A stretch of DNA of 50,998 bases from a virus: the IMG/VR virus record IMGVR_UViG_3300042517_001594, positions 1 through 50,998 of that record, one strand, 5' to 3'. Shown here one piece after another: positions 5,659-50,998 of the stretch. A program made the position numbers and the translations under genes. Every line of letters starts with the position of its first letter. Positions within the stretch are counted from its first letter, which is position 1. A model generated the notes under the pieces. The model had not been told where the DNA came from, ran no database searches, and was given only the letters and a program-made list of their open reading frames with translations.

Positions 5659-7007
5659 GTCGGTTCCTTTGCGGCGGCGCCCTGGATGTGCCGCGCGTAG
5701 ACGGCGCCATCCCTGATGGCCCATCCGAGGGGTCGGTTGTCGGTGGTCAGCTCAGCCACCAGGCCTTCGCGCAGCAGCTCCAGGAGCAGCGCCTTGGCGG
5801 TGGCCGGGGTGCAGCGCAGCATCCCACCCAGCGTGGTGCTGCCCATGGGGCGGTCTGCGTTGTTGAGGATGCTGAGGGCCCGGGCGCGCCGTTCGTCCCG
5901 GGTGTCCTTCTTCTTCGGGCTGGCTTCTTCCTTGGGTGGCGCATCCCGCACCTCCCAATCAAGGCGCATGGCGAATCCGTCCTCGTTGTCCACGATGACG
6001 GGGTTGATGATGATGGGCCGGTGCTTGCGCCCCGTGCGCAGGTCGAATGTGACCCGCGCCTCCATGGAGTCGTCGTCATCCGGGCGCGTCTTCTCGAAAT
6101 ACACGCCGCCCTGGACCATCTGGTGAATGACGCTGGACCCGCGCATGCGCTGCCCACCGCGCCGCTTGCCGCTGCTGGCGGACGCCTTGCCCGCGTGCTG
6201 CACCACCCACACGGTGGCCCCGGTGATGTCCCGGATGAACTTCAGCTGGCCCATGACGCGCTTCAGTTCGGTGGCGCTGTTCTCGTCCTCAATGCTGAAC
6301 ACGTCCAACAGCGGGTCAATCAGCACCGCCGCCGGCAGCTCGCCCACCTCATTGCTGTGGCGCAGCACGCGCGCGCAAAACTCCACCACGGACTCGTCAT
6401 CCAGCAGGTCCGCGGACTGGCTCGGCAGGATGCGAACGCGCTTGGCCACCAGCGCCCGCTGCTCCTGGGTGAACCGCACCGCCAGCGCCGTGGTGCGCGC
6501 CTGCAGCTCCTGTTGCGTGTCCTCCGCGCAGAAGACGTACGTGGGGCCGCTGGTCTCCACCGGGAAATCAGCGCAGCCCCAGAGGCACGCCCGGCACGCA
6601 ATGGCCATGAGCAGGTCCAGCATGGTCCAGGTCTTCCCGCACTTCGGTTCCGCGGACAGGACCATCAGGCGGCCCGGCAGCGAGAAGTGGCGCACCTGCC
6701 ACTCCATCTTGGGGAACCGCTTTTCCCAGAGCTGGCCCACCGTGAGGTCATCCTCGGTGAACCGCGTGAACCCCTTGGCGCGCGCCTTGAGCTTTCCGAG
6801 CCGTTCCCGCGCAACGCCGCGCCAGTGGTGCAGCGGGTCGTTCTCGGGCGTGCTCTTCGCCTCCTCCGGGTCGGTGTTGGCCGCGGGGAGCAGCGGCTTC
6901 CCCGCCAGCGCAGCGCCAGCCATCTGGGCCACCAGCGCCTGGAACTCCGGGTGCTGGGCCAGCGCGTGGAAGTTGATGGCGGGGGTCTCAGGCTGCGTCA
7001 CGCGCAT
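5655..7007 (-). CDS. RepA-like replication ATPase/helicase with C-terminal winged helix
   Basis: Encodes 450 residues. This is a RecA-fold ATPase of the AAA_25/RepA type: Walker A AEPKCGKTW (residues 119-127), Walker B AAVLIDPLLDVF with Asp 231, and a sensor-like WVVQHAGK near 267-274. It probably acts as the phage replicative helicase or loader. Residues about 385-450 form a separate winged-helix-like domain (RALSILNNADRPMGSTTLGG and on) that is almost the same as the C-terminus of the antirepressor at 19610-20506. The start at MRVTQPE overlaps the upstream gene by 20 bp; a GTG two codons later is an alternative. The order clamp - Toprim protein - ATPase - RusA gives a compact replication block. 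Confidence 0.85.
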   Translation of the reverse strand: MRVTQPETPAINFHALAQHPEFQALVAQMAGAALAGKPLLPAANTDPEEAKSTPENDPLHHWRGVARERLGKLKARAKGFTRFTEDDLTVGQLWEKRFPKMEWQVRHFSLPGRLMVLSAEPKCGKTWTMLDLLMAIACRACLWGCADFPVETSGPTYVFCAEDTQQELQARTTALAVRFTQEQRALVAKRVRILPSQSADLLDDESVVEFCARVLRHSNEVGELPAAVLIDPLLDVFSIEDENSATELKRVMGQLKFIRDITGATVWVVQHAGKASASSGKRRGGQRMRGSSVIHQMVQGGVYFEKTRPDDDDSMEARVTFDLRTGRKHRPIIINPVIVDNEDGFAMRLDWEVRDAPPKEEASPKKKDTRDERRARALSILNNADRPMGSTTLGGMLRCTPATAKALLLELLREGLVAELTTDNRPLGWAIRDGAVYARHIQGAAAKEPT

Positions 7008-8996: not shown

Positions 8997-9303
8997 GTTT
9001 GCCCCCGGTCTGCTTTGTGCGGTGTTGCTGGATGGGCCCGTGCATCTCTTCGGCCACCCACTGGTAGACGCGCCGCACGCCGCCGTCGGCACCACGCACG
9101 TCCCACGTGCGCAGGTCGCCGGCATCCACCATCTGGCGCAGCGCACGCAACACGCTGTGGTTGGTCCCGTAGCGGGCCAGCCCAAGCGCCTGCAGGATGT
9201 CGCCGGTGCTCGCGGGCTTGCCGTGCTCGGCCAGCAGCGCACGCAGCATCGGGCGCCAGTCGCGCGTGGCGTTGCCTCCATCCCAACGGGATGCGCGGGT
9301 CAT
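8980..9303 (-). CDS. Winged-helix DNA-binding protein
   Basis: Encodes 107 residues; the ATG overlaps the methyltransferase stop (ATGA). Residues 20-90 read as a winged helix: WRPMLRALLAEHG, then ASTGDILQALGLARYG, TNHSVLRALRQMVDAG and a wing DLRTWDVRGADGGVRRVYQW. The C-terminus is basic (HRTKQTGGKHARRL). It probably regulates transcription or helps replication initiation. Its wHTH resembles in layout, but not closely in sequence, the modules on the ATPase and antirepressor. Confidence 0.72.
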   Translation of the reverse strand: MTRASRWDGGNATRDWRPMLRALLAEHGKPASTGDILQALGLARYGTNHSVLRALRQMVDAGDLRTWDVRGADGGVRRVYQWVAEEMHGPIQQHRTKQTGGKHARRL

Positions 9304-10217
9304 GCGTGCTCCATCACATGGCGAACCACGTGCGCTGCCATCGGTGGACACACGGCGTTGCCGAGCATGTGGATGTCCAGGCGGCGGTTACCGGTGAGGT
9401 GGTAGCCACCACCGAAGCCCATGGCGGCGCGGTATTCCTCCACGCGCAGCATCCGCATGCGGTCGCCGTCCACCACGGCCCAGCGGTCACGCGTGGTGAT
9501 GGTGCCGATGGGGCGCCGCAGGTCACGCCCCGTCAGACCGCTTCCCCCGCCGTAATAAGGCATGACAAAGCGCCGGCCGAACTGGGCGCGGCCGCGGGCC
9601 ACGCGCGCGAGTGTGTTGGGTGCGCGGCCTGGCCGGTCCACCAGCGACCACGTGCCGGCGCCCAGGTCCAGCACGTCCGCCACCGGTGCGTGGCGCGAAG
9701 TGCCTGGCGGAACAGGGAGCGGGGTGCGGCCGCGCACGCCCACCACAAAGAGGCGCGGGCGGTTCTGCGGCACGCCGGTGTCCGCGGCGTCCAGCACCTG
9801 CATGGAGAGCGCGTAGCCCAGCGCCTCCATGGCCATGCGCCACGCCGGGAACAGAACCCATTCCGCGTATGTCTCCACGTTCTCGACGACAAAGGCGTGC
9901 GGGCGGTGGCACTCGGCCGCGCTCACCACAGCCCACGCCGTGGCACGTGCCGCGTCATGGTGGGGCTTGTCTTTCCCGCGCGCGCGGCTGTGACCCTGGC
10001 AGGCTGGCGACGCCAGAAGCAGGTCGTGCCTCGGAACCTGGGTCCAGTCGGCCTGCTGCAGGTCCTGGCAGATGTGCTGCGTGTCCGGGTGGTTGTTGGC
10101 GTGCACCTGCACCGCGGTGGGCCAGTGGTTGGCAGCCCACGCCACATGCACGCCGGCCATGCGTGCGCCTTCCGTGAAGCCACCGGCGCCGGCAAAGAGG
10201 TCGATGGCGGTGGTCAT
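9300..10217 (-). CDS. C5 cytosine DNA methyltransferase
   Basis: Encodes 305 residues from ATG 10217, overlapping the upstream stop. All main motifs are visible: motif I DLFAGAGGFTEG (6-17), motif IV SPACQGHS with catalytic Cys 73, motif VI ENVE (112-115), motif VIII QNRPRLF (151-157), a target recognition region around 190-250, and motif X GNAVCPPMAAH near the C-terminus. The PACQ form replaces the usual PPCQ. No restriction endonuclease is adjacent, so it is an orphan enzyme, probably protecting phage DNA from host restriction. The target site cannot be read from sequence. Confidence 0.93.
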   Translation of the reverse strand: MTTAIDLFAGAGGFTEGARMAGVHVAWAANHWPTAVQVHANNHPDTQHICQDLQQADWTQVPRHDLLLASPACQGHSRARGKDKPHHDAARATAWAVVSAAECHRPHAFVVENVETYAEWVLFPAWRMAMEALGYALSMQVLDAADTGVPQNRPRLFVVGVRGRTPLPVPPGTSRHAPVADVLDLGAGTWSLVDRPGRAPNTLARVARGRAQFGRRFVMPYYGGGSGLTGRDLRRPIGTITTRDRWAVVDGDRMRMLRVEEYRAAMGFGGGYHLTGNRRLDIHMLGNAVCPPMAAHVVRHVMEHA

Positions 10218-10507
10218 GCTGCCACCCGCGCTTCCCCGTCCAGGTTCAGCGGCAGCGCGCCGACCACGGTGTTGGCCTTCAGCCACGCGAGGCGTTCCAG
10301 CGCACCGCACTGGCGGGCCCGCCCCATGGAGCCCAACCACAGCGCCGCAGACACACCCGCGGCATCACAGTCCTCACGCGTGACGGTGAAGGTGACCGCG
10401 GCATCGCGCGCCGCGTGCCGCATGCTGCGCGCGTGACGGAGGCACTCCGCAACGGGCCTCGACGACATCCACGCCACATCCAGCGTTTCAATGGTGTGCG
10501 TCAGCAT
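10214..10507 (-). CDS. Hypothetical protein
   Basis: Encodes 97 residues from ATG 10507, which has an AAGGAA site 3 bases upstream, formed partly by the end of the preceding small gene. The protein is mostly helical (AECLRHARSMRHAARDAAVTF). The stop overlaps the methyltransferase start (ATGA), so the two are translationally coupled. A methyltransferase partner role is possible by position only. Confidence 0.72.
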   Translation of the reverse strand: MLTHTIETLDVAWMSSRPVAECLRHARSMRHAARDAAVTFTVTREDCDAAGVSAALWLGSMGRARQCGALERLAWLKANTVVGALPLNLDGEARVAA

Positions 10508-11496: not shown

Positions 11497-12867
11497 TTAT
11501 TCGTCGTTGGACGCTTTGAGCGCCAAGCTGGCCCGCAGCGCTTCCACGAGATCTTGCGGGGGAGGCTCGGTGGTGGCGGCCTGGCGTTCCCGCAGTGCGC
11601 GTGCCTCAGCGGGCGTCATCACCGTGGGTACCTGGCTCTCGCGCTCCAGCATCCCGCCGGCCTCGCGGATGCGCTGCATGATGCGGCGCTTCACCTCCGC
11701 GCCCTTGCCCTTCTTGACGAGCGGCGGCGTCATCCGCTGCGCCTCCTGCACCGCGGCGTCCACGCCGCCCTTGGTGATGGTCGTCTCCACCACAATGGCA
11801 CCGGCCGCCGCGGCGCCCAGCTCTTCGCGCACAATGGGTTCCGCAATGGCGCCGATGATGTGCTCCCGCTTGGACCGGCGCATCACCAGCACCTTGTCGC
11901 CCAGGTGCACATCCTCGGTGGCGCATAGCGCGTTCTGCTCGGCAATAACGTCGTTGGCCACCGAGCGCATGCGCTCCGCCAGCGCGCGCGCCCTGCCCAT
12001 CATGTCCGGCGTGATGGTCGCCGTTGCGGGGTCCTGCCCGTTCAGGAGCGCCCACATGCGCGCCACCACCAGCGCGGGAGACGTGTTGCCCTGTTCTGCC
12101 GCCACGAACGTGGCGGACAGGCCCACATGTGCGGGGCATCCCTTGCGCGCGCGGCAGTGCCTGCAGTGGTCCCCTGGACGGATGTGCTCCGGGCCCACCG
12201 TCACCACCTGGCGCGCGCGCTCCACGCGCTGCAGCCAGTCCAGCCGCCACAACTCCAGGTCGAAGCGGTCCCACACGTGCTGGATGCGCCGGTGCGGATT
12301 CTCCGCCAGCCGGATTTCCTCCGACGTCACCGTGTCGGCGCCCGGGAACAGGTCCGCCACCACGCATGCACCGGCCATCAGCTGGTGGATGTGGTTCCCC
12401 GGCAGGAACCCGCGCTTGTAGTCGGCGTGGTACGGCACCGACTCCCCGCGCACGTCCAGCGTCATCGGCACCTCGGTGGCGGTGAGGTTTGCCGCCGCGT
12501 AGCGCCCGCGCGGGTCATCGTTGTTGGGCGCGGGGATGCGGCGCGCCCGTCCGGTGCGGAGGTCCAGGGCCCACGATTCCTCCGTGACGTACCCAAGGCC
12601 CAGGGGCAGCTGGTCCAGACCCAGCGCTGCGCATGCATCCCGCCATTCCGCGGGAACCTCACGCAGCGCCAGCGAGTAGGCCATGCCCGCCTGCGGACCC
12701 TGCAGCGCGTTGCCGTACAGCTCCAGGAATCGATGCACCGCGGTGCCCAGGTCTGCCCATGGGCTGGATTCATCGGGCCACTGGGTGAGCAGCGCGGCGG
12801 CCAGGCATGCGGCGAAACGGTCCAGGCTGCTGGCGGAAGGGAGGATGGGCAGGCGGGTGGTGGACAT
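11497..12867 (-). CDS. PD-(D/E)XK exonuclease with 4Fe-4S cluster (RecB/Cas4-like)
   Basis: Encodes 456 residues. The nuclease core shows DLGTAVHRFLE with His 45, an acidic Asp near 138 and HADYKRG with D149 and K151, the PD-(D/E)XK motif. Cys 21 in SLDRFAACL plus C235, C238 and C244 (CRHCRARKGC) give the four ligands of a 4Fe-4S cluster like that of AddB and Cas4. The C-terminal 180 residues are helical and charged. It should degrade linear double-stranded DNA to provide single strands for the RecT protein encoded three genes upstream, forming a Red-like recombination pair. Confidence 0.85.
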   Translation of the reverse strand: MSTTRLPILPSASSLDRFAACLAAALLTQWPDESSPWADLGTAVHRFLELYGNALQGPQAGMAYSLALREVPAEWRDACAALGLDQLPLGLGYVTEESWALDLRTGRARRIPAPNNDDPRGRYAAANLTATEVPMTLDVRGESVPYHADYKRGFLPGNHIHQLMAGACVVADLFPGADTVTSEEIRLAENPHRRIQHVWDRFDLELWRLDWLQRVERARQVVTVGPEHIRPGDHCRHCRARKGCPAHVGLSATFVAAEQGNTSPALVVARMWALLNGQDPATATITPDMMGRARALAERMRSVANDVIAEQNALCATEDVHLGDKVLVMRRSKREHIIGAIAEPIVREELGAAAAGAIVVETTITKGGVDAAVQEAQRMTPPLVKKGKGAEVKRRIMQRIREAGGMLERESQVPTVMTPAEARALRERQAATTEPPPQDLVEALRASLALKASNDE

Positions 12868-14439: not shown

Positions 14440-14621
14440 TCCGTCCACCTGCCTCCCGCGGCGTTGTCCGCGTTCTCTTTGAGGGTTGAGTCATCCAGGG
14501 CATCCCGCACCGCGTCGTGCGCCGCCTGGTACCTGTCCGGGTCCAGCCGCACCGCGCGCACCAGCTGGTCCAGCGCGGCCTGCGCATGCTGCCGGGCCTT
14601 GAGTTCGTGCTCCACGCTCAC
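14436..14621 (-). CDS. Small hypothetical protein
   Basis: Encodes 61 residues from a GTG that overlaps the recT stop (GTGA); its stop overlaps the next ATG. All-helical and charged (ELKARQHAQAALDQLVRAV). Function is unknown. Confidence 0.65.
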   Translation of the reverse strand: MSVEHELKARQHAQAALDQLVRAVRLDPDRYQAAHDAVRDALDDSTLKENADNAAGGRWTE

Positions 14622-15571
14622 GGTGCACCGCCGGTCTGCTGCTCCCTGGCAAAGCGCTCCAGGTCCGCGAGCTCCGCGCGGCGGCGCTTGCCCGCCGCCA
14701 CCAGCGCGTTGCGCGCGTCACCCGCAGGCCAGCCCGCCACCTCACGCAGCAGCGCGGAACCACCGTTGGCGGTGGCGTCCATGTCCTCCGCAGTGGCGGT
14801 GCGGATGCGCTCTAGAAGCGCCGCCACGCGCGACTGCTCGTCGTCGGACGGCGGCGCGGGCGCAGCGGTTGCGGCGGGCGGCGCCGGCGTTGGGGCCGGG
14901 GGTGCGGTGGGTGGAAGCACCTCGGCCTGTGTATCCACCGTGGCGGGCTCGTCGTTGGCGGGCGCGCCACCACCACCGGCCATCACTGGCGCCGCGTCCA
15001 CGGTGGTGGCGCTCCGGTCCAGTTCGTCCGGGTCGTACACGCCGCCCACCACATCGGGGTACACCGCACGGGCAAGCGCTGCGGAACAACGCGCGCGCAG
15101 CATGGCGGCGGGATACGCCTTCCAAGGTCCACGCCCAGTGAGGCCCGCGGCCTGGGCTTCCTTGAACGTGAAAGTCATCCGCGTGGGCGCAGGCTCGCCG
15201 TCACGCAGGGTCTCATAGGCGGCCTGGGTGGCGCTGGACTCCACCAGTCGGAAGTAGCGGCAGGCCTTGGAGCGCTTCACCAGGCCCACCATCATGTCCG
15301 CGGAGAGCGTGGGCTTGCCGTCGATGATGTGGATGCCGCCAATGGATTGCATCGGGGAGAGGCCCAGCTCGCGGCCCTTCATCATCACCAGGATGAGGTC
15401 CGCGGGCTTCTGGCGGAGCGCCTGGGGCAGCAGCTGGGCGCTGGCCATCTGCTCCGCCATCACCATGAGCTGAGTGAAGTTCTCCGCCTCAAACGGGATG
15501 ATGGACGCGGAAAGCGCCATGCTGGTGCTCGGGTTGCTCGGGCTCGTGCGGGTCAGTGCGGTGGTGGTCAT
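14618..15571 (-). CDS. recT: RecT-family single-strand annealing protein
   Basis: Encodes 317 residues. The region 60-105 has the RecT-family signature KGRELGLSPMQSIGGIHIID followed by GKPTLSADMMVGLVKRS, then RMTFTFKEAQAAGL and a PAAMLRARCSAALARAVYPDVVGGVYDPDEL block. The C-terminal 110 residues are Pro/Ala-rich then helical, a likely flexible tail for partner binding. It anneals complementary single strands in phage recombination. It is preceded by a 159-bp gap and has a GGAG site about 8 bases before the ATG. It pairs functionally with the exonuclease at 11497-12867. Confidence 0.88.
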   Translation of the reverse strand: MTTTALTRTSPSNPSTSMALSASIIPFEAENFTQLMVMAEQMASAQLLPQALRQKPADLILVMMKGRELGLSPMQSIGGIHIIDGKPTLSADMMVGLVKRSKACRYFRLVESSATQAAYETLRDGEPAPTRMTFTFKEAQAAGLTGRGPWKAYPAAMLRARCSAALARAVYPDVVGGVYDPDELDRSATTVDAAPVMAGGGGAPANDEPATVDTQAEVLPPTAPPAPTPAPPAATAAPAPPSDDEQSRVAALLERIRTATAEDMDATANGGSALLREVAGWPAGDARNALVAAGKRRRAELADLERFAREQQTGGAP

Positions 15572-48005: not shown

Positions 48006-48322
48006 GCACCGGCATGCACCGCAAGGCTCCCGGGGAGCCGCTCCGCACGTCCTCCCGCACGCGCTGGCGCGAGTGGCTCCGCGTGGTGCGCATGGTGGTC
48101 CTGGCACCCAAGGCGTTCCCAGAGCCCACGCCGGCCGACATGCTGCCCGCCACCCAGGTGCGCTGGTCCCGCTACCAGGTGGTGCGCCACGGCCAGAAGG
48201 CGTGGCTCTGGGAGGTTCGGACGCAGAGCCTGTGCCGGACCGGGCTGTGCTGGAGTGAGGTTGCCGCGGACCTGGACATCCAGGAGTCCATGGAGTTCAT
48301 GCGCAGCTGGGCCGTGCAGTGA
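48002..48322 (+). CDS. Hypothetical protein
   Basis: Encodes 106 residues; coupled to both neighbours by ATGA/GTGA overlaps. Basic N-terminal half (RTSSRTRWREWLRVVRMVVL), mixed C-terminal half with a Cys pair (SLCRTGLCWSE). Function is unknown. Confidence 0.68.
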   Translation: MSTGMHRKAPGEPLRTSSRTRWREWLRVVRMVVLAPKAFPEPTPADMLPATQVRWSRYQVVRHGQKAWLWEVRTQSLCRTGLCWSEVAADLDIQESMEFMRSWAVQ

Positions 48323-48531
48323 CCAGCGCCCCCACCGACTACCGCGCCAGCGTCCTCTCCCTGCTCGCCACCGGGCCCATGAGCCGGAAGCAGCTGGCCA
48401 CCGCCATGGGAATCCGCTCCACCAACGCCGACCTGGACCGCACGCTGCAAGCCTTGGTGCGTGACCGGAAGGCGCTCCGCCTGCCGCATGAGCCGGGGAG
48501 CGTGGCCCTGTTCCAGCTGGCCGGAGCGTGA
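48319..48531 (+). CDS. Small winged-helix protein
   Basis: Encodes 70 residues from GTG 48319. The sequence reads as a winged helix: YRASVLSLLATGPMSRKQLA, TAMGIRSTNADLDRTLQALV and a short wing with RKALRLPHEPGSVALFQL. Last gene of the rightward operon. A late regulator is possible. Confidence 0.65.
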   Translation: MTSAPTDYRASVLSLLATGPMSRKQLATAMGIRSTNADLDRTLQALVRDRKALRLPHEPGSVALFQLAGA

Positions 48532-48536
48532 CGCGC

Positions 48537-49805
48537 TCACCCTGCGTCGCGGCACACCGGCGTCACAATGCACAGCATCAGGTGCGTCTTCTCCGCGTCT
48601 GCACGCGGTGAAACGCCTTCCATTCTGAGGATTGTGATTCCTCGGGTCGCGGGTTCGAACCCCGTCATTCGCCCCAACAGAACACCCGAAACCCCCGGAA
48701 ACACCGGGGGTTTTTCATTTGCCCCGCCGGCCGCGCTGTCCATCCTGTCCACCGTGTCCAACCTCTCCGGCACACCGGCGTCACACTCTGTGGCCAAGAC
48801 TGCGAGGTGATCCGCAGTCAGGCGCCCGTACACGCGCTGCAGCATGGTGGTCGTGGCGTGGCCCATCATCGGCGCCAGGTACTCCAGCGGCTGGCCGGAC
48901 AGGCGCCCCCACATTCCGAACGTGCGCCGCAGGTCGTTGGTGCTCACCGGTGCCACGGGGTGCCCGGTTGCCTCGGTGGCGCGCGCGCAGGCGGCCCGCA
49001 GGTCCCGGTTCACGTTCTGCCAGGGCAGGAACAGCGCGCCCTCCACGCCGGCCGCGTGCTTGGCGGTGAACGCCAACAGGTCCCGTTGCCATGGCATCAC
49101 CACCGGCACCTGCCGCATGCGGGTGACGCGCTTGTGCCCGCGGACCTGGACCAGCGTGGCGCCCACGTCCCCGCGCTGCGCCGCATCCGTCTCGCTCCAG
49201 TTGGCGGAGGTGGCCACGGCAAACGCCACCCGCGCGGCCCGGTCCGGGGTCAGCTGTTCCAGCAGGGCGCGCAGCTCCCATGGGCGCAGCCATCGGTCCC
49301 GGGGCTGGTAGTCGCCCGCCAGGGACGGCGGCATCACCGCGGCCAGGTCGCCCACCCACAGGCCCCGGCGCTTGGCCAGTTGCAGCGCCTGGGAGAGCAC
49401 CACCAGCTCCTTTTGGATGGTGGTGTCCCGCGCATCCTCGCTGCGACGCTGGGACACGTAGGCGTCCACCGCGGCGGGGGTGAGCGCGCGCATGGGCACG
49501 TCCAACAGACGTACCAGGTGGCCCGCCTTGGAGCGGTAGAAGGTGAGGGTGGCGGGCCGGCGCTTACTCGCGCCCACCTCCTCTTCCTTCAGCGCAATGA
49601 CGGCATCCAGCGCATCGGTCAGGCGGGCTTGCGCCTGGGCTGCGTGATGCGGATTCGCGGCTTCCCGTTCGAGCCGCCGGGCAACAATCGCAGCTGCGGC
49701 CTTGTCCGTGCAGTGCGTGGAGACGCGCTGCGCCTGCCCGTGGGCGTCGTAGACACGCGTCCACCAGATGCGCCCTCGGAGATACAGCCGGTCTCGCCCT
49801 GGCAT
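48537..49805 (-). CDS. int: Tyrosine integrase whose 3' end contains attP
   Basis: Encodes 422 residues from MPGRDRLYLRGRIWW. N-terminal DNA-binding and core-binding regions precede the catalytic domain. Visible catalytic elements are Arg 293 in TNDLRRTF (its first residue Asn replaces the usual His), His 316 in MMGHATTT and Tyr 326 in MLQRVYGRL. The first catalytic Arg, expected in TG(A)RWSE, is Asn 202 here (TSANWSE; codon AAC). Residues about 365-372 are encoded by the terminator and about 377-393 by the tRNA-His fragment, so integration would exchange the last 30 residues. It is convergent with the late operon. Confidence 0.9.
   Translation of the reverse strand: MPGRDRLYLRGRIWWTRVYDAHGQAQRVSTHCTDKAAAAIVARRLEREAANPHHAAQAQARLTDALDAVIALKEEEVGASKRRPATLTFYRSKAGHLVRLLDVPMRALTPAAVDAYVSQRRSEDARDTTIQKELVVLSQALQLAKRRGLWVGDLAAVMPPSLAGDYQPRDRWLRPWELRALLEQLTPDRAARVAFAVATSANWSETDAAQRGDVGATLVQVRGHKRVTRMRQVPVVMPWQRDLLAFTAKHAAGVEGALFLPWQNVNRDLRAACARATEATGHPVAPVSTNDLRRTFGMWGRLSGQPLEYLAPMMGHATTTMLQRVYGRLTADHLAVLATECDAGVPERLDTVDRMDSAAGGANEKPPVFPGVSGVLLGRMTGFEPATRGITILRMEGVSPRADAEKTHLMLCIVTPVCRDAG
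48627..48676 (+). other. attP core: 3' half of a tRNA-His(GTG) gene
   Basis: The sequence folds as anticodon stem GAGGA/TCCTC with loop TTGTGAT (anticodon GTG), variable loop, T-arm with TTCGAAC loop, then 3' acceptor strand CATTCGC, discriminator C73 and encoded CCA. C73 is specific to tRNA-His. The 5' half (acceptor start and D-arm) is absent. This is the expected form of attP for a phage that integrates in the 3' end of a tRNA gene and restores it. It overlaps the int reading frame. Confidence 0.88.
48689..48715 (+). terminator. Strong intrinsic terminator downstream of attP
   Basis: AAACCCCCGG - AAACA - CCGGGGGTTT forms a 10-bp perfect stem followed by TTTTT on the plus strand. It ends the rightward transcript, and after integration would end the restored tRNA-His transcript. 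The A tract before the stem lets it work on the minus strand as well. It lies inside the int reading frame. Confidence 0.88.
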
Positions 49806-49978
49806 TGGTACGCCTCCCAGGCCGCTTCCCAGACGTCCAGCGGCAGGCGCAGGGCAGCACGGCAACCGGGCGCCCGTCCACGTGCGCGCGCCACCTCCAG
49901 CATCAGGCGGTAGGCCAGTGCTCGGCTGATGCTGTGGCGGGCCGCCACGTCGGAAGCGGTGAGGTCTGGGGTGTTCAT
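49619..49978 (-). CDS. Excisionase-like helix-turn-helix protein
   Basis: Encodes 119 residues from MNTPDLTASDVAARHSISRA. The first 55 residues look like an excisionase/MerR-type winged helix (LTASDVAARHSISRALAYRL; a basic wing with LPLDVWEAAWEAY). The C-terminal 62 codons overlap the start of int in another frame (49619-49805), which is long for such overlaps. It may direct excision together with Int. The overlapping tail is basic and may be non-essential. Confidence 0.6.
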   Translation of the reverse strand: MNTPDLTASDVAARHSISRALAYRLMLEVARARGRAPGCRAALRLPLDVWEAAWEAYQCQGETGCISEGASGGRVSTTPTGRRSASPRTARTRPQLRLLPGGSNGKPRIRITQPRRKPA

Positions 49979-50669: not shown

Positions 50670-50930
50670 TCAGCGGATTTCCCGCGCGGTCATCTTCCAG
50701 CAGCGACCGCACTGCCACGCGGTGCGCACCACTGCCGGCTCCACGCGCTCAATGTTCTGGCACTCATCACCGCAGTGGGTGCAGCGCGTGCGGAAGATGC
50801 GCCACCCAGGCGCGGGGCCAATGGGCTCCGGCTCTGGTGTGCGGCGGCGCCATGCGCTGACCAGCACGTAGCGGATGGCGGCGTGAAGAGGCCAACCCAG
50901 GTTGAGCCACAGGAACAGGATGCGCCTCAT
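50670..50930 (-). CDS. Membrane-anchored zinc-ribbon protein across the window join
   Basis: Encodes 86 residues. The start (50930, equal to base 59) overlaps the stop of the gene at 56-727 by ATGA. Residues 4-26 are hydrophobic (ILFLWLNLGWPLHAAIRYVL), a possible membrane segment. The C-terminal half has CTHC (50-53), C57 and CGRC (74-77), a zinc ribbon. Upstream neighbour of the endolysin, so a link to lysis is possible but unproven. Confidence 0.72.
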   Translation of the reverse strand: MRRILFLWLNLGWPLHAAIRYVLVSAWRRRTPEPEPIGPAPGWRIFRTRCTHCGDECQNIERVEPAVVRTAWQCGRCWKMTAREIR

Positions 50931-50998
50931 GTGATCGCCCCCGGGTCAGGCCCACCGCAGCCCTGCACCTGCGCCGGACGCGGTTCCAGTTCCGCCAC
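50872..50998. repeat. Terminal direct repeat, right copy (assembly overlap)
   Basis: Exact second copy of bases 1-127. Removing one copy leaves a 50,871-bp circle. Features touching bases 1-127 exist once in the real molecule. Confidence 0.95.

What the first reader, a model, noticed from the sequence alone, without database searches (positions are those of the whole stretch)
48600..48720. attP (tRNA-His 3' half) and a terminator lie inside the integrase gene
The sequence shows the anticodon arm, T-arm, C73 and CCA of tRNA-His(GTG) without its 5' half, within the int frame, followed by a strong terminator also inside int. Integration into a host tRNA-His gene would restore the tRNA, give it a phage terminator, and replace the last 30 or so Int residues with host-derived ones. 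Myxococcus phage Mx8 is known to carry attP inside its int gene so that the prophage makes a different Int; this phage appears to use the same plan with a different tRNA. Prophage Int could therefore differ in stability or activity.
Basis: partly seen in the sequence, partly recalled or inferred. Interest (0 to 1): 0.78.

Follow-up and report, generated by a model that had tools for sequence, protein, structure and literature searches.

The report
Phage attachment site inside integrase gene
This phage keeps its chromosome-insertion site (the last two-thirds of a histidine tRNA gene plus a transcription stop signal) inside the end of its own integrase gene, so inserting into a host should change the end of the integrase; the same layout is known from Myxococcus phage Mx8, so this looks like a new example of a rare but known design.

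Summary
Confirmed on sequence. A tRNA-His(GTG) 3' part (48627-48676, +) and, 11 nt on, an intrinsic terminator (48688-48715, +) lie antisense inside the int frame (- strand, ATG 49805, stop 48537-48539). The whole attP-like region sits in the int tail: a perfect 18-bp direct repeat (48550-48567, 48768-48785), probably Int arm-type sites, brackets it. Myxococcus phage Mx8 has the same order (Tyr, repeat, terminator, tRNA 3' end, then stop) and a similar repeat (TGTGACNNCGG occurs only at these sites in both genomes), yet the two integrases are barely alike. A Burkholderia phage with a tRNA-His attP-like site ends int before the terminator, the ordinary layout. No host, prophage or relative was found, so integration is inferred. 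The open frame alone is weak evidence: a third of all frames here stay open that long. New observation: Int lacks catalytic Arg I (Asn202) and His II (Asn290), so it may be inactive or atypical. New member of a known kind.

The parts
48537..49805 (-). int, tyrosine-recombinase-family integrase, 422 aa from ATG 49805 (GGGAGG upstream); the open frame extends to TTG 49865
   Evidence: ORF; phrog_1 integrase E 5e-27; weak PF00589 and PF02899 matches; RBS
48627..48676 (+). tRNA-His(GTG) 3' part, presumed attP core: anticodon stem-loop, variable loop, T-arm, acceptor 3' strand, C73, CCA
   Evidence: sequence; blastn to annotated tRNA-His genes
48688..48715 (+). intrinsic terminator 11 nt after CCA, directed so as to stop transcription leaving the restored tRNA gene; antisense inside int
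   Evidence: fold, z -3.8
48768..48785 (-). direct repeat copy 1 (TGTGACGCCGGTGTGCCG in int orientation), candidate arm-type Int site, about 43 nt after the Tyr codon
   Evidence: perfect 18-bp repeat; motif shared with Mx8 attP
48550..48567 (-). direct repeat copy 2, candidate arm-type Int site on the other side of the core; read by the int frame in a different phase from copy 1, so a DNA element and not a protein repeat
48537..48539 (-). TGA stop of int in the phage (attP) form
48828..48830 (-). codon of the catalytic Tyr326
   Evidence: alignment with six integrases
49200..49202 (-). Asn202 at the place of catalytic Arg I (SANWSE against HP1 GARWSE)
48936..48938 (-). Asn290 at the place of His II (TNDLRR against THDARR in Mx8)
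49619..49978 (-). ORF with a possible HTH overlapping the start of int, in the place held by uoi (excisionase-like) in Mx8; no Pfam match, role inferred from position only

Best explanation
The region 48550-48785 is the attP of a temperate phage, and all of it lies in the 3' part of the integrase gene. Int would bind the two 18-bp repeats as arm sites and recombine the tRNA-His part with a host tRNA-His(GTG) gene near the anticodon. The host 5' part joined to the phage 3' part restores a working tRNA, which then ends at the phage-borne terminator; the terminator also keeps tRNA transcription from running antisense into int. The same crossover swaps the end of int: the phage form (422 aa) becomes a prophage form that runs antisense into the host tRNA and, with the usual D-arm, stops at a TGA after about 5 new residues (about 397 aa). 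Shown: the elements, their order, the open int frame, the likeness to Mx8. Inferred: integration, host, arm binding, prophage Int. Any change in Int activity is carried over from what is reported for Mx8.
For: tRNA-His 3' part with C73 and CCA inside the int frame. Terminator right after CCA. Perfect 18-bp repeat bracketing the core over 236 bp, with no other copy in the genome, read in different phases by int. Mx8 has the same order inside its int, with repeat, hairpin and core annotated by its depositors, its hairpin is a terminator in the tRNA direction, and TGTGACNNCGG occurs only twice in each genome, all at attP (0.05% of window 18-mers match the Mx8 repeat as well). A review states that Mx8 attP lies in int and that integration gives int a new 3' end with altered specificity (PMC6070905). 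Chimeras with five real tRNA-His genes all give a 397-aa Int. The phage genome is a closed circle with intact attP.
Against: No host tRNA, prophage or related integrase found. The open frame through attP is not unusual at this GC content, and third-position GC falls from 0.89 in the Int body to about 0.7 in the tail, so the tail may be read-through of little use. Int lacks Arg I and His II, so it may not be able to recombine. Simulating Mx8 with unrelated tRNA-Asp genes gave host-dependent tails of 35-107 aa, so tail predictions need the true host.
Confidence: 0.72

Rival explanations
1. Ordinary attP downstream of int: the functional Int ends soon after Tyr326, and the frame runs on through attP only because stops are rare at 69% GC. 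The swap of the tail on integration has no functional meaning.
For: About a third of frames stay open this long; codon-position GC weakens in the tail; the five integrases aligned here other than Mx8 end within about 30 residues of the Tyr; Burkholderia phage Magia has tRNA-His part, terminator, int with the stop before the terminator.
Against: There is no stop, so the tail is made whatever its use; Mx8 has the same layout and there the altered Int is reported to differ in specificity (PMC6070905).
Confidence: 0.4
2. Degenerate or non-catalytic integrase: with Arg I and His II replaced by Asn, Int no longer recombines, and the attP is a relic or is used by another recombinase in trans.
For: Asn202 and Asn290 against Arg and His in six other phage integrases and HP1; no other integrase match in the genome with the phrog_1 profile.
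Against: Arg II, His III and Tyr are kept, the frame is intact over 422 codons, the attP elements are all intact; the alignment is remote (about 20% identity) and the AlphaFold model is too poor to place the residues (mean pLDDT 41).
Confidence: 0.25
3. The tRNA part is a chance capture or a decayed phage tRNA gene and not an attachment site.
For: Some phages carry tRNA-His genes.
Against: The 3' part is intact, ends exactly at CCA, is followed by a terminator, sits beside int and is bracketed by a repeat of the Mx8 attP type.
Confidence: 0.05

Closest known systems
Myxococcus phage Mx8 int/attP (Tojo 1996, Magrini 1999; records D86464, NC_003085; review PMC6070905)
   Same: attP inside int after the catalytic Tyr; order Tyr, TGTGACNNCGG repeat, terminator directed away from the tRNA, tRNA 3' end, int stop; long int tail; HTH gene overlapping int start
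   Different: 29-bp core limited to a tRNA T-arm and acceptor end (tRNA-Asp, from memory), not a tRNA-His part reaching the anticodon; 112 residues after the core, not 29; integrases barely alike (best BLASTP piece E 0.014 and only in the tail encoded by terminator and tRNA); Mx8 Int has Arg I and His II
SSV-type 'suicidal' archaeal integrases (PMC8371274)
   Same: attP inside the integrase gene and overlapping a tRNA gene
   Different: there integration splits the gene and removes the catalytic part from the N-terminal part; here only the extreme C-terminus changes
Integration-dependent immunity of mycobacteriophages (PMC8092301)
   Same: attP inside a phage gene, so integration changes a C-terminus
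   Different: there the gene is the repressor, often with an ssrA-like tag; here it is int, ending ...CRDAG with no such tag
Burkholderia phage Magia tRNA-His attP-like site (L010)
   Same: tRNA-His 3' part, then terminator, then int on the opposite strand
   Different: int stops before the terminator

Membership tests
Mx8-type attP-within-int module | tRNA 3' end in the int frame downstream of the catalytic Tyr | tested here: met
   Mx8 compared
Mx8-type attP-within-int module | repeat, hairpin and core in that order inside int | tested here: met
Mx8-type attP-within-int module | integration at a host tRNA gene gives int a new 3' end | not testable with these tools
   no host or prophage found; modelled only
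Mx8-type attP-within-int module | integrase homologous to Mx8 Int | tested here: inconclusive
   BLASTP not significant outside the tRNA-encoded tail; the module is alike, common descent of the protein is not shown
Tyrosine recombinases | catalytic R-K-H-R-H/W-Y set | tested here: not met
   Arg I is Asn202 and His II is Asn290; R293, H316, Y326 kept. Family placed by profile (phrog_1); activity doubtful
SSV-type suicidal integrase | integration separates catalytic and N-terminal parts | tested here: not met
   the core lies 52-67 residues after the Tyr
Integration-dependent immunity | attP inside the repressor gene | tested here: not met
   the gene is int

The most novel reading that the evidence does not exclude
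An attP module (arm repeats, terminator, tRNA 3' end) that travels as a unit embedded in the tail of quite different integrases, with the host tRNA D-arm supplying the stop codon that converts phage Int to a shorter prophage Int; here paired with an active integrase that works without the canonical Arg I.
Probability: 0.1. Interest if true: 0.75.

Novelty: new member of a known kind. Interest (0 to 1): 0.42.

Why it matters
Mx8 is a classic bacterial case of attP inside int. A second phage with a very different integrase and another tRNA but the same order of repeat, terminator and tRNA end suggests that the layout is a selected design, in which integration itself edits the integrase. It gives a concrete, testable prediction (422 against about 397 residues) and a reason to look for the layout in tRNA-targeting phages whose int lacks a stop before the terminator.

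Tried and rejected
Host search: exact 44-nt tRNA-His 3' part in genome contigs, none; degenerate and shorter forms in viral contigs, only a contig of the same phage. Int relatives: none in phages, genome contigs or viral contigs beyond the same phage. Two structural proteins and the terminase gave no close relatives; the terminase matches phages of many hosts at about 30%, so no host is assigned. The genome search could not be centred on a virus record or an E. coli locus, and control genomes carry no handles. Rfam and ARAGORN do not call the tRNA part. The terminator scan missed the site on the + strand, probably because its stem pairs with part of the T-run; folding was used instead. Mx8 proteins show no significant match in the window. 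AlphaFold gave a poor model; no fold search was run on it. Simulating Mx8 lysogens with unrelated tRNA-Asp genes is not informative about tail length.

Full report
What is there. On the + strand, 48627-48676 is the 3' part of a tRNA-His(GTG) gene: a perfect anticodon stem-loop, variable loop, T-arm, acceptor 3' strand, C73 and encoded CCA. It matches annotated tRNA-His genes at 88% over 49 nt, and ARAGORN finds no complete tRNA. Eleven nt after CCA lies a strong intrinsic terminator (48688-48715; -19.7 kcal/mol, z -3.8) whose T-run is on the + strand only, so it ends transcription leaving the tRNA and not that of int. Both lie antisense inside the int ORF, which begins at ATG 49805 behind GGGAGG and has its first stop at 48537-48539.

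Is the frame meaningful? The open frame itself is weak evidence. In this 69% GC window 33-39% of all frames stay open for 80-96 codons, and third-position GC drops from 0.89 in the Int body to about 0.7 in the tail. Still, no stop precedes 48539 in the int frame, while the other two - strand frames are closed, so the phage form of Int must carry the translated attP.

The whole attP. An 18-bp perfect direct repeat brackets the tRNA part: 48550-48567 and 48768-48785, with no further copy at up to 3 mismatches in the genome. The int frame reads the two copies in different phases (IVTPVCR against ECDAGVP), so selection is on the DNA. The span of 236 bp, the distance from the core on both sides, and the predicted N-terminal strand-strand-strand-helix fold (low to moderate confidence) fit arm-type Int sites. 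This is inference.

Comparison with Mx8. In Mx8 int, after Tyr354, come TGTGACAGCGG twice (6369-6390), a hairpin (6408-6435), the 29-bp core (6441-6469) carrying the 3' end of a tRNA, and 112 further codons. The D86464 record annotates repeats and the recombination core inside intP. I find that the Mx8 hairpin is a terminator in the tRNA direction (-24.4 kcal/mol with TTTTTCTTTT), as in the window. The window repeat in int orientation is TGTGACGCCGGTGTGCCG. TGTGACNNCGG occurs exactly twice in each phage genome, always at attP, and only 0.05% of window 18-mers match the Mx8 repeat region as well as this one. The motif was chosen after seeing both, so this is suggestive and not proof. The integrases themselves are hardly alike: the best BLASTP piece (E 0.014) covers only the tail, where it reflects the terminator and tRNA DNA. 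No Mx8 protein tested matches the window significantly.

Contrast with the ordinary layout. Burkholderia phage Magia has a tRNA-His 3' part, a terminator, then int on the opposite strand, but int stops before the terminator. So the order of parts is not special in itself; what is special in Mx8 and in this phage is that int reads through all of it. The Islander paper names the viruses Mx8 and SSV as known cases of integrases that extend across attP, and counts more than 2000 islands with anticodon-centred sites in tRNA genes (PMC4383910).

What integration would do. A crossover anywhere in the shared tRNA part joins host 5' tRNA to phage 3' tRNA and terminator, and joins int to host DNA. I joined the phage to five real tRNA-His genes (E. 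coli, Aeromonas, Acinetobacter, Neisseria, Tsukamurella). In all five the int frame runs five codons into the host tRNA and meets TGA, the complement of positions 12-14 (TCA) of the D-arm, giving 397 aa instead of 422. A control with Mx8 and unrelated tRNA-Asp genes gave tails of very different length, so the true host is needed. For Mx8 a review reports that the altered Int stays active with changed specificity (PMC6070905); an effect of that kind is possible here but untested.

A new doubt. In an alignment with six phage integrases and in the HP1 alignment, Asn202 stands in place of catalytic Arg I and Asn290 in place of His II, while R293, H316 and Y326 are kept. Arg I is close to invariant in active tyrosine recombinases (general knowledge). 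Either this Int is inactive, or it is an atypical active enzyme. The alignment is remote and the AlphaFold model is too poor to settle it. An earlier count gave the residue as 203; 202 is correct.

Genome form and host. A second contig (L003) overlaps the window's two ends with 100% identity and shows a 127-bp end repeat, so the genome is a closed circle of about 50.87 kb with intact attP. No host could be named: the exact 44-nt tRNA part is in none of the genome contigs, and no relatives of Int were found. Integration is therefore inferred, not shown.

Verdict. Observation confirmed; interpretation partly supported; a new member of the Mx8 kind, with a sharper and slightly different prediction, and a caveat about catalysis.

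Noticed in passing
49200-49202 and 48936-48938 (-): Int has Asn in place of catalytic Arg I and His II of tyrosine recombinases, while six other phage integrases keep both.
   Followed up: partly
1-127 and 50872-50998: Identical 127-bp ends; contig IMGVR_UViG_3300034066_002662 (L003) bridges them, so the genome is circular, about 50.87 kb.
   Followed up: yes
48319-48531 (+): Small ORF with a weak HTH_20 match ends 5 nt from the end of int, convergent; after integration it would lie at the opposite prophage end.
   Followed up: no
9300-10340 (-), 14618-15571 (-), 11497-12867 (-): C5 cytosine methyltransferase, RecT-like annealing protein and exonuclease in a phage most of whose large late-region proteins have no PHROG match.
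   Followed up: no
L006 (Mx8) 6408-6435: The hairpin annotated as a repeat in Mx8 intP folds as an intrinsic terminator for the adjoining tRNA.
   Followed up: yes
L011 2501-2549 (Burkholderia phage BgManors32): A tRNA-His 3' part lies in an intergenic stretch with no integrase annotated nearby.
   Followed up: no
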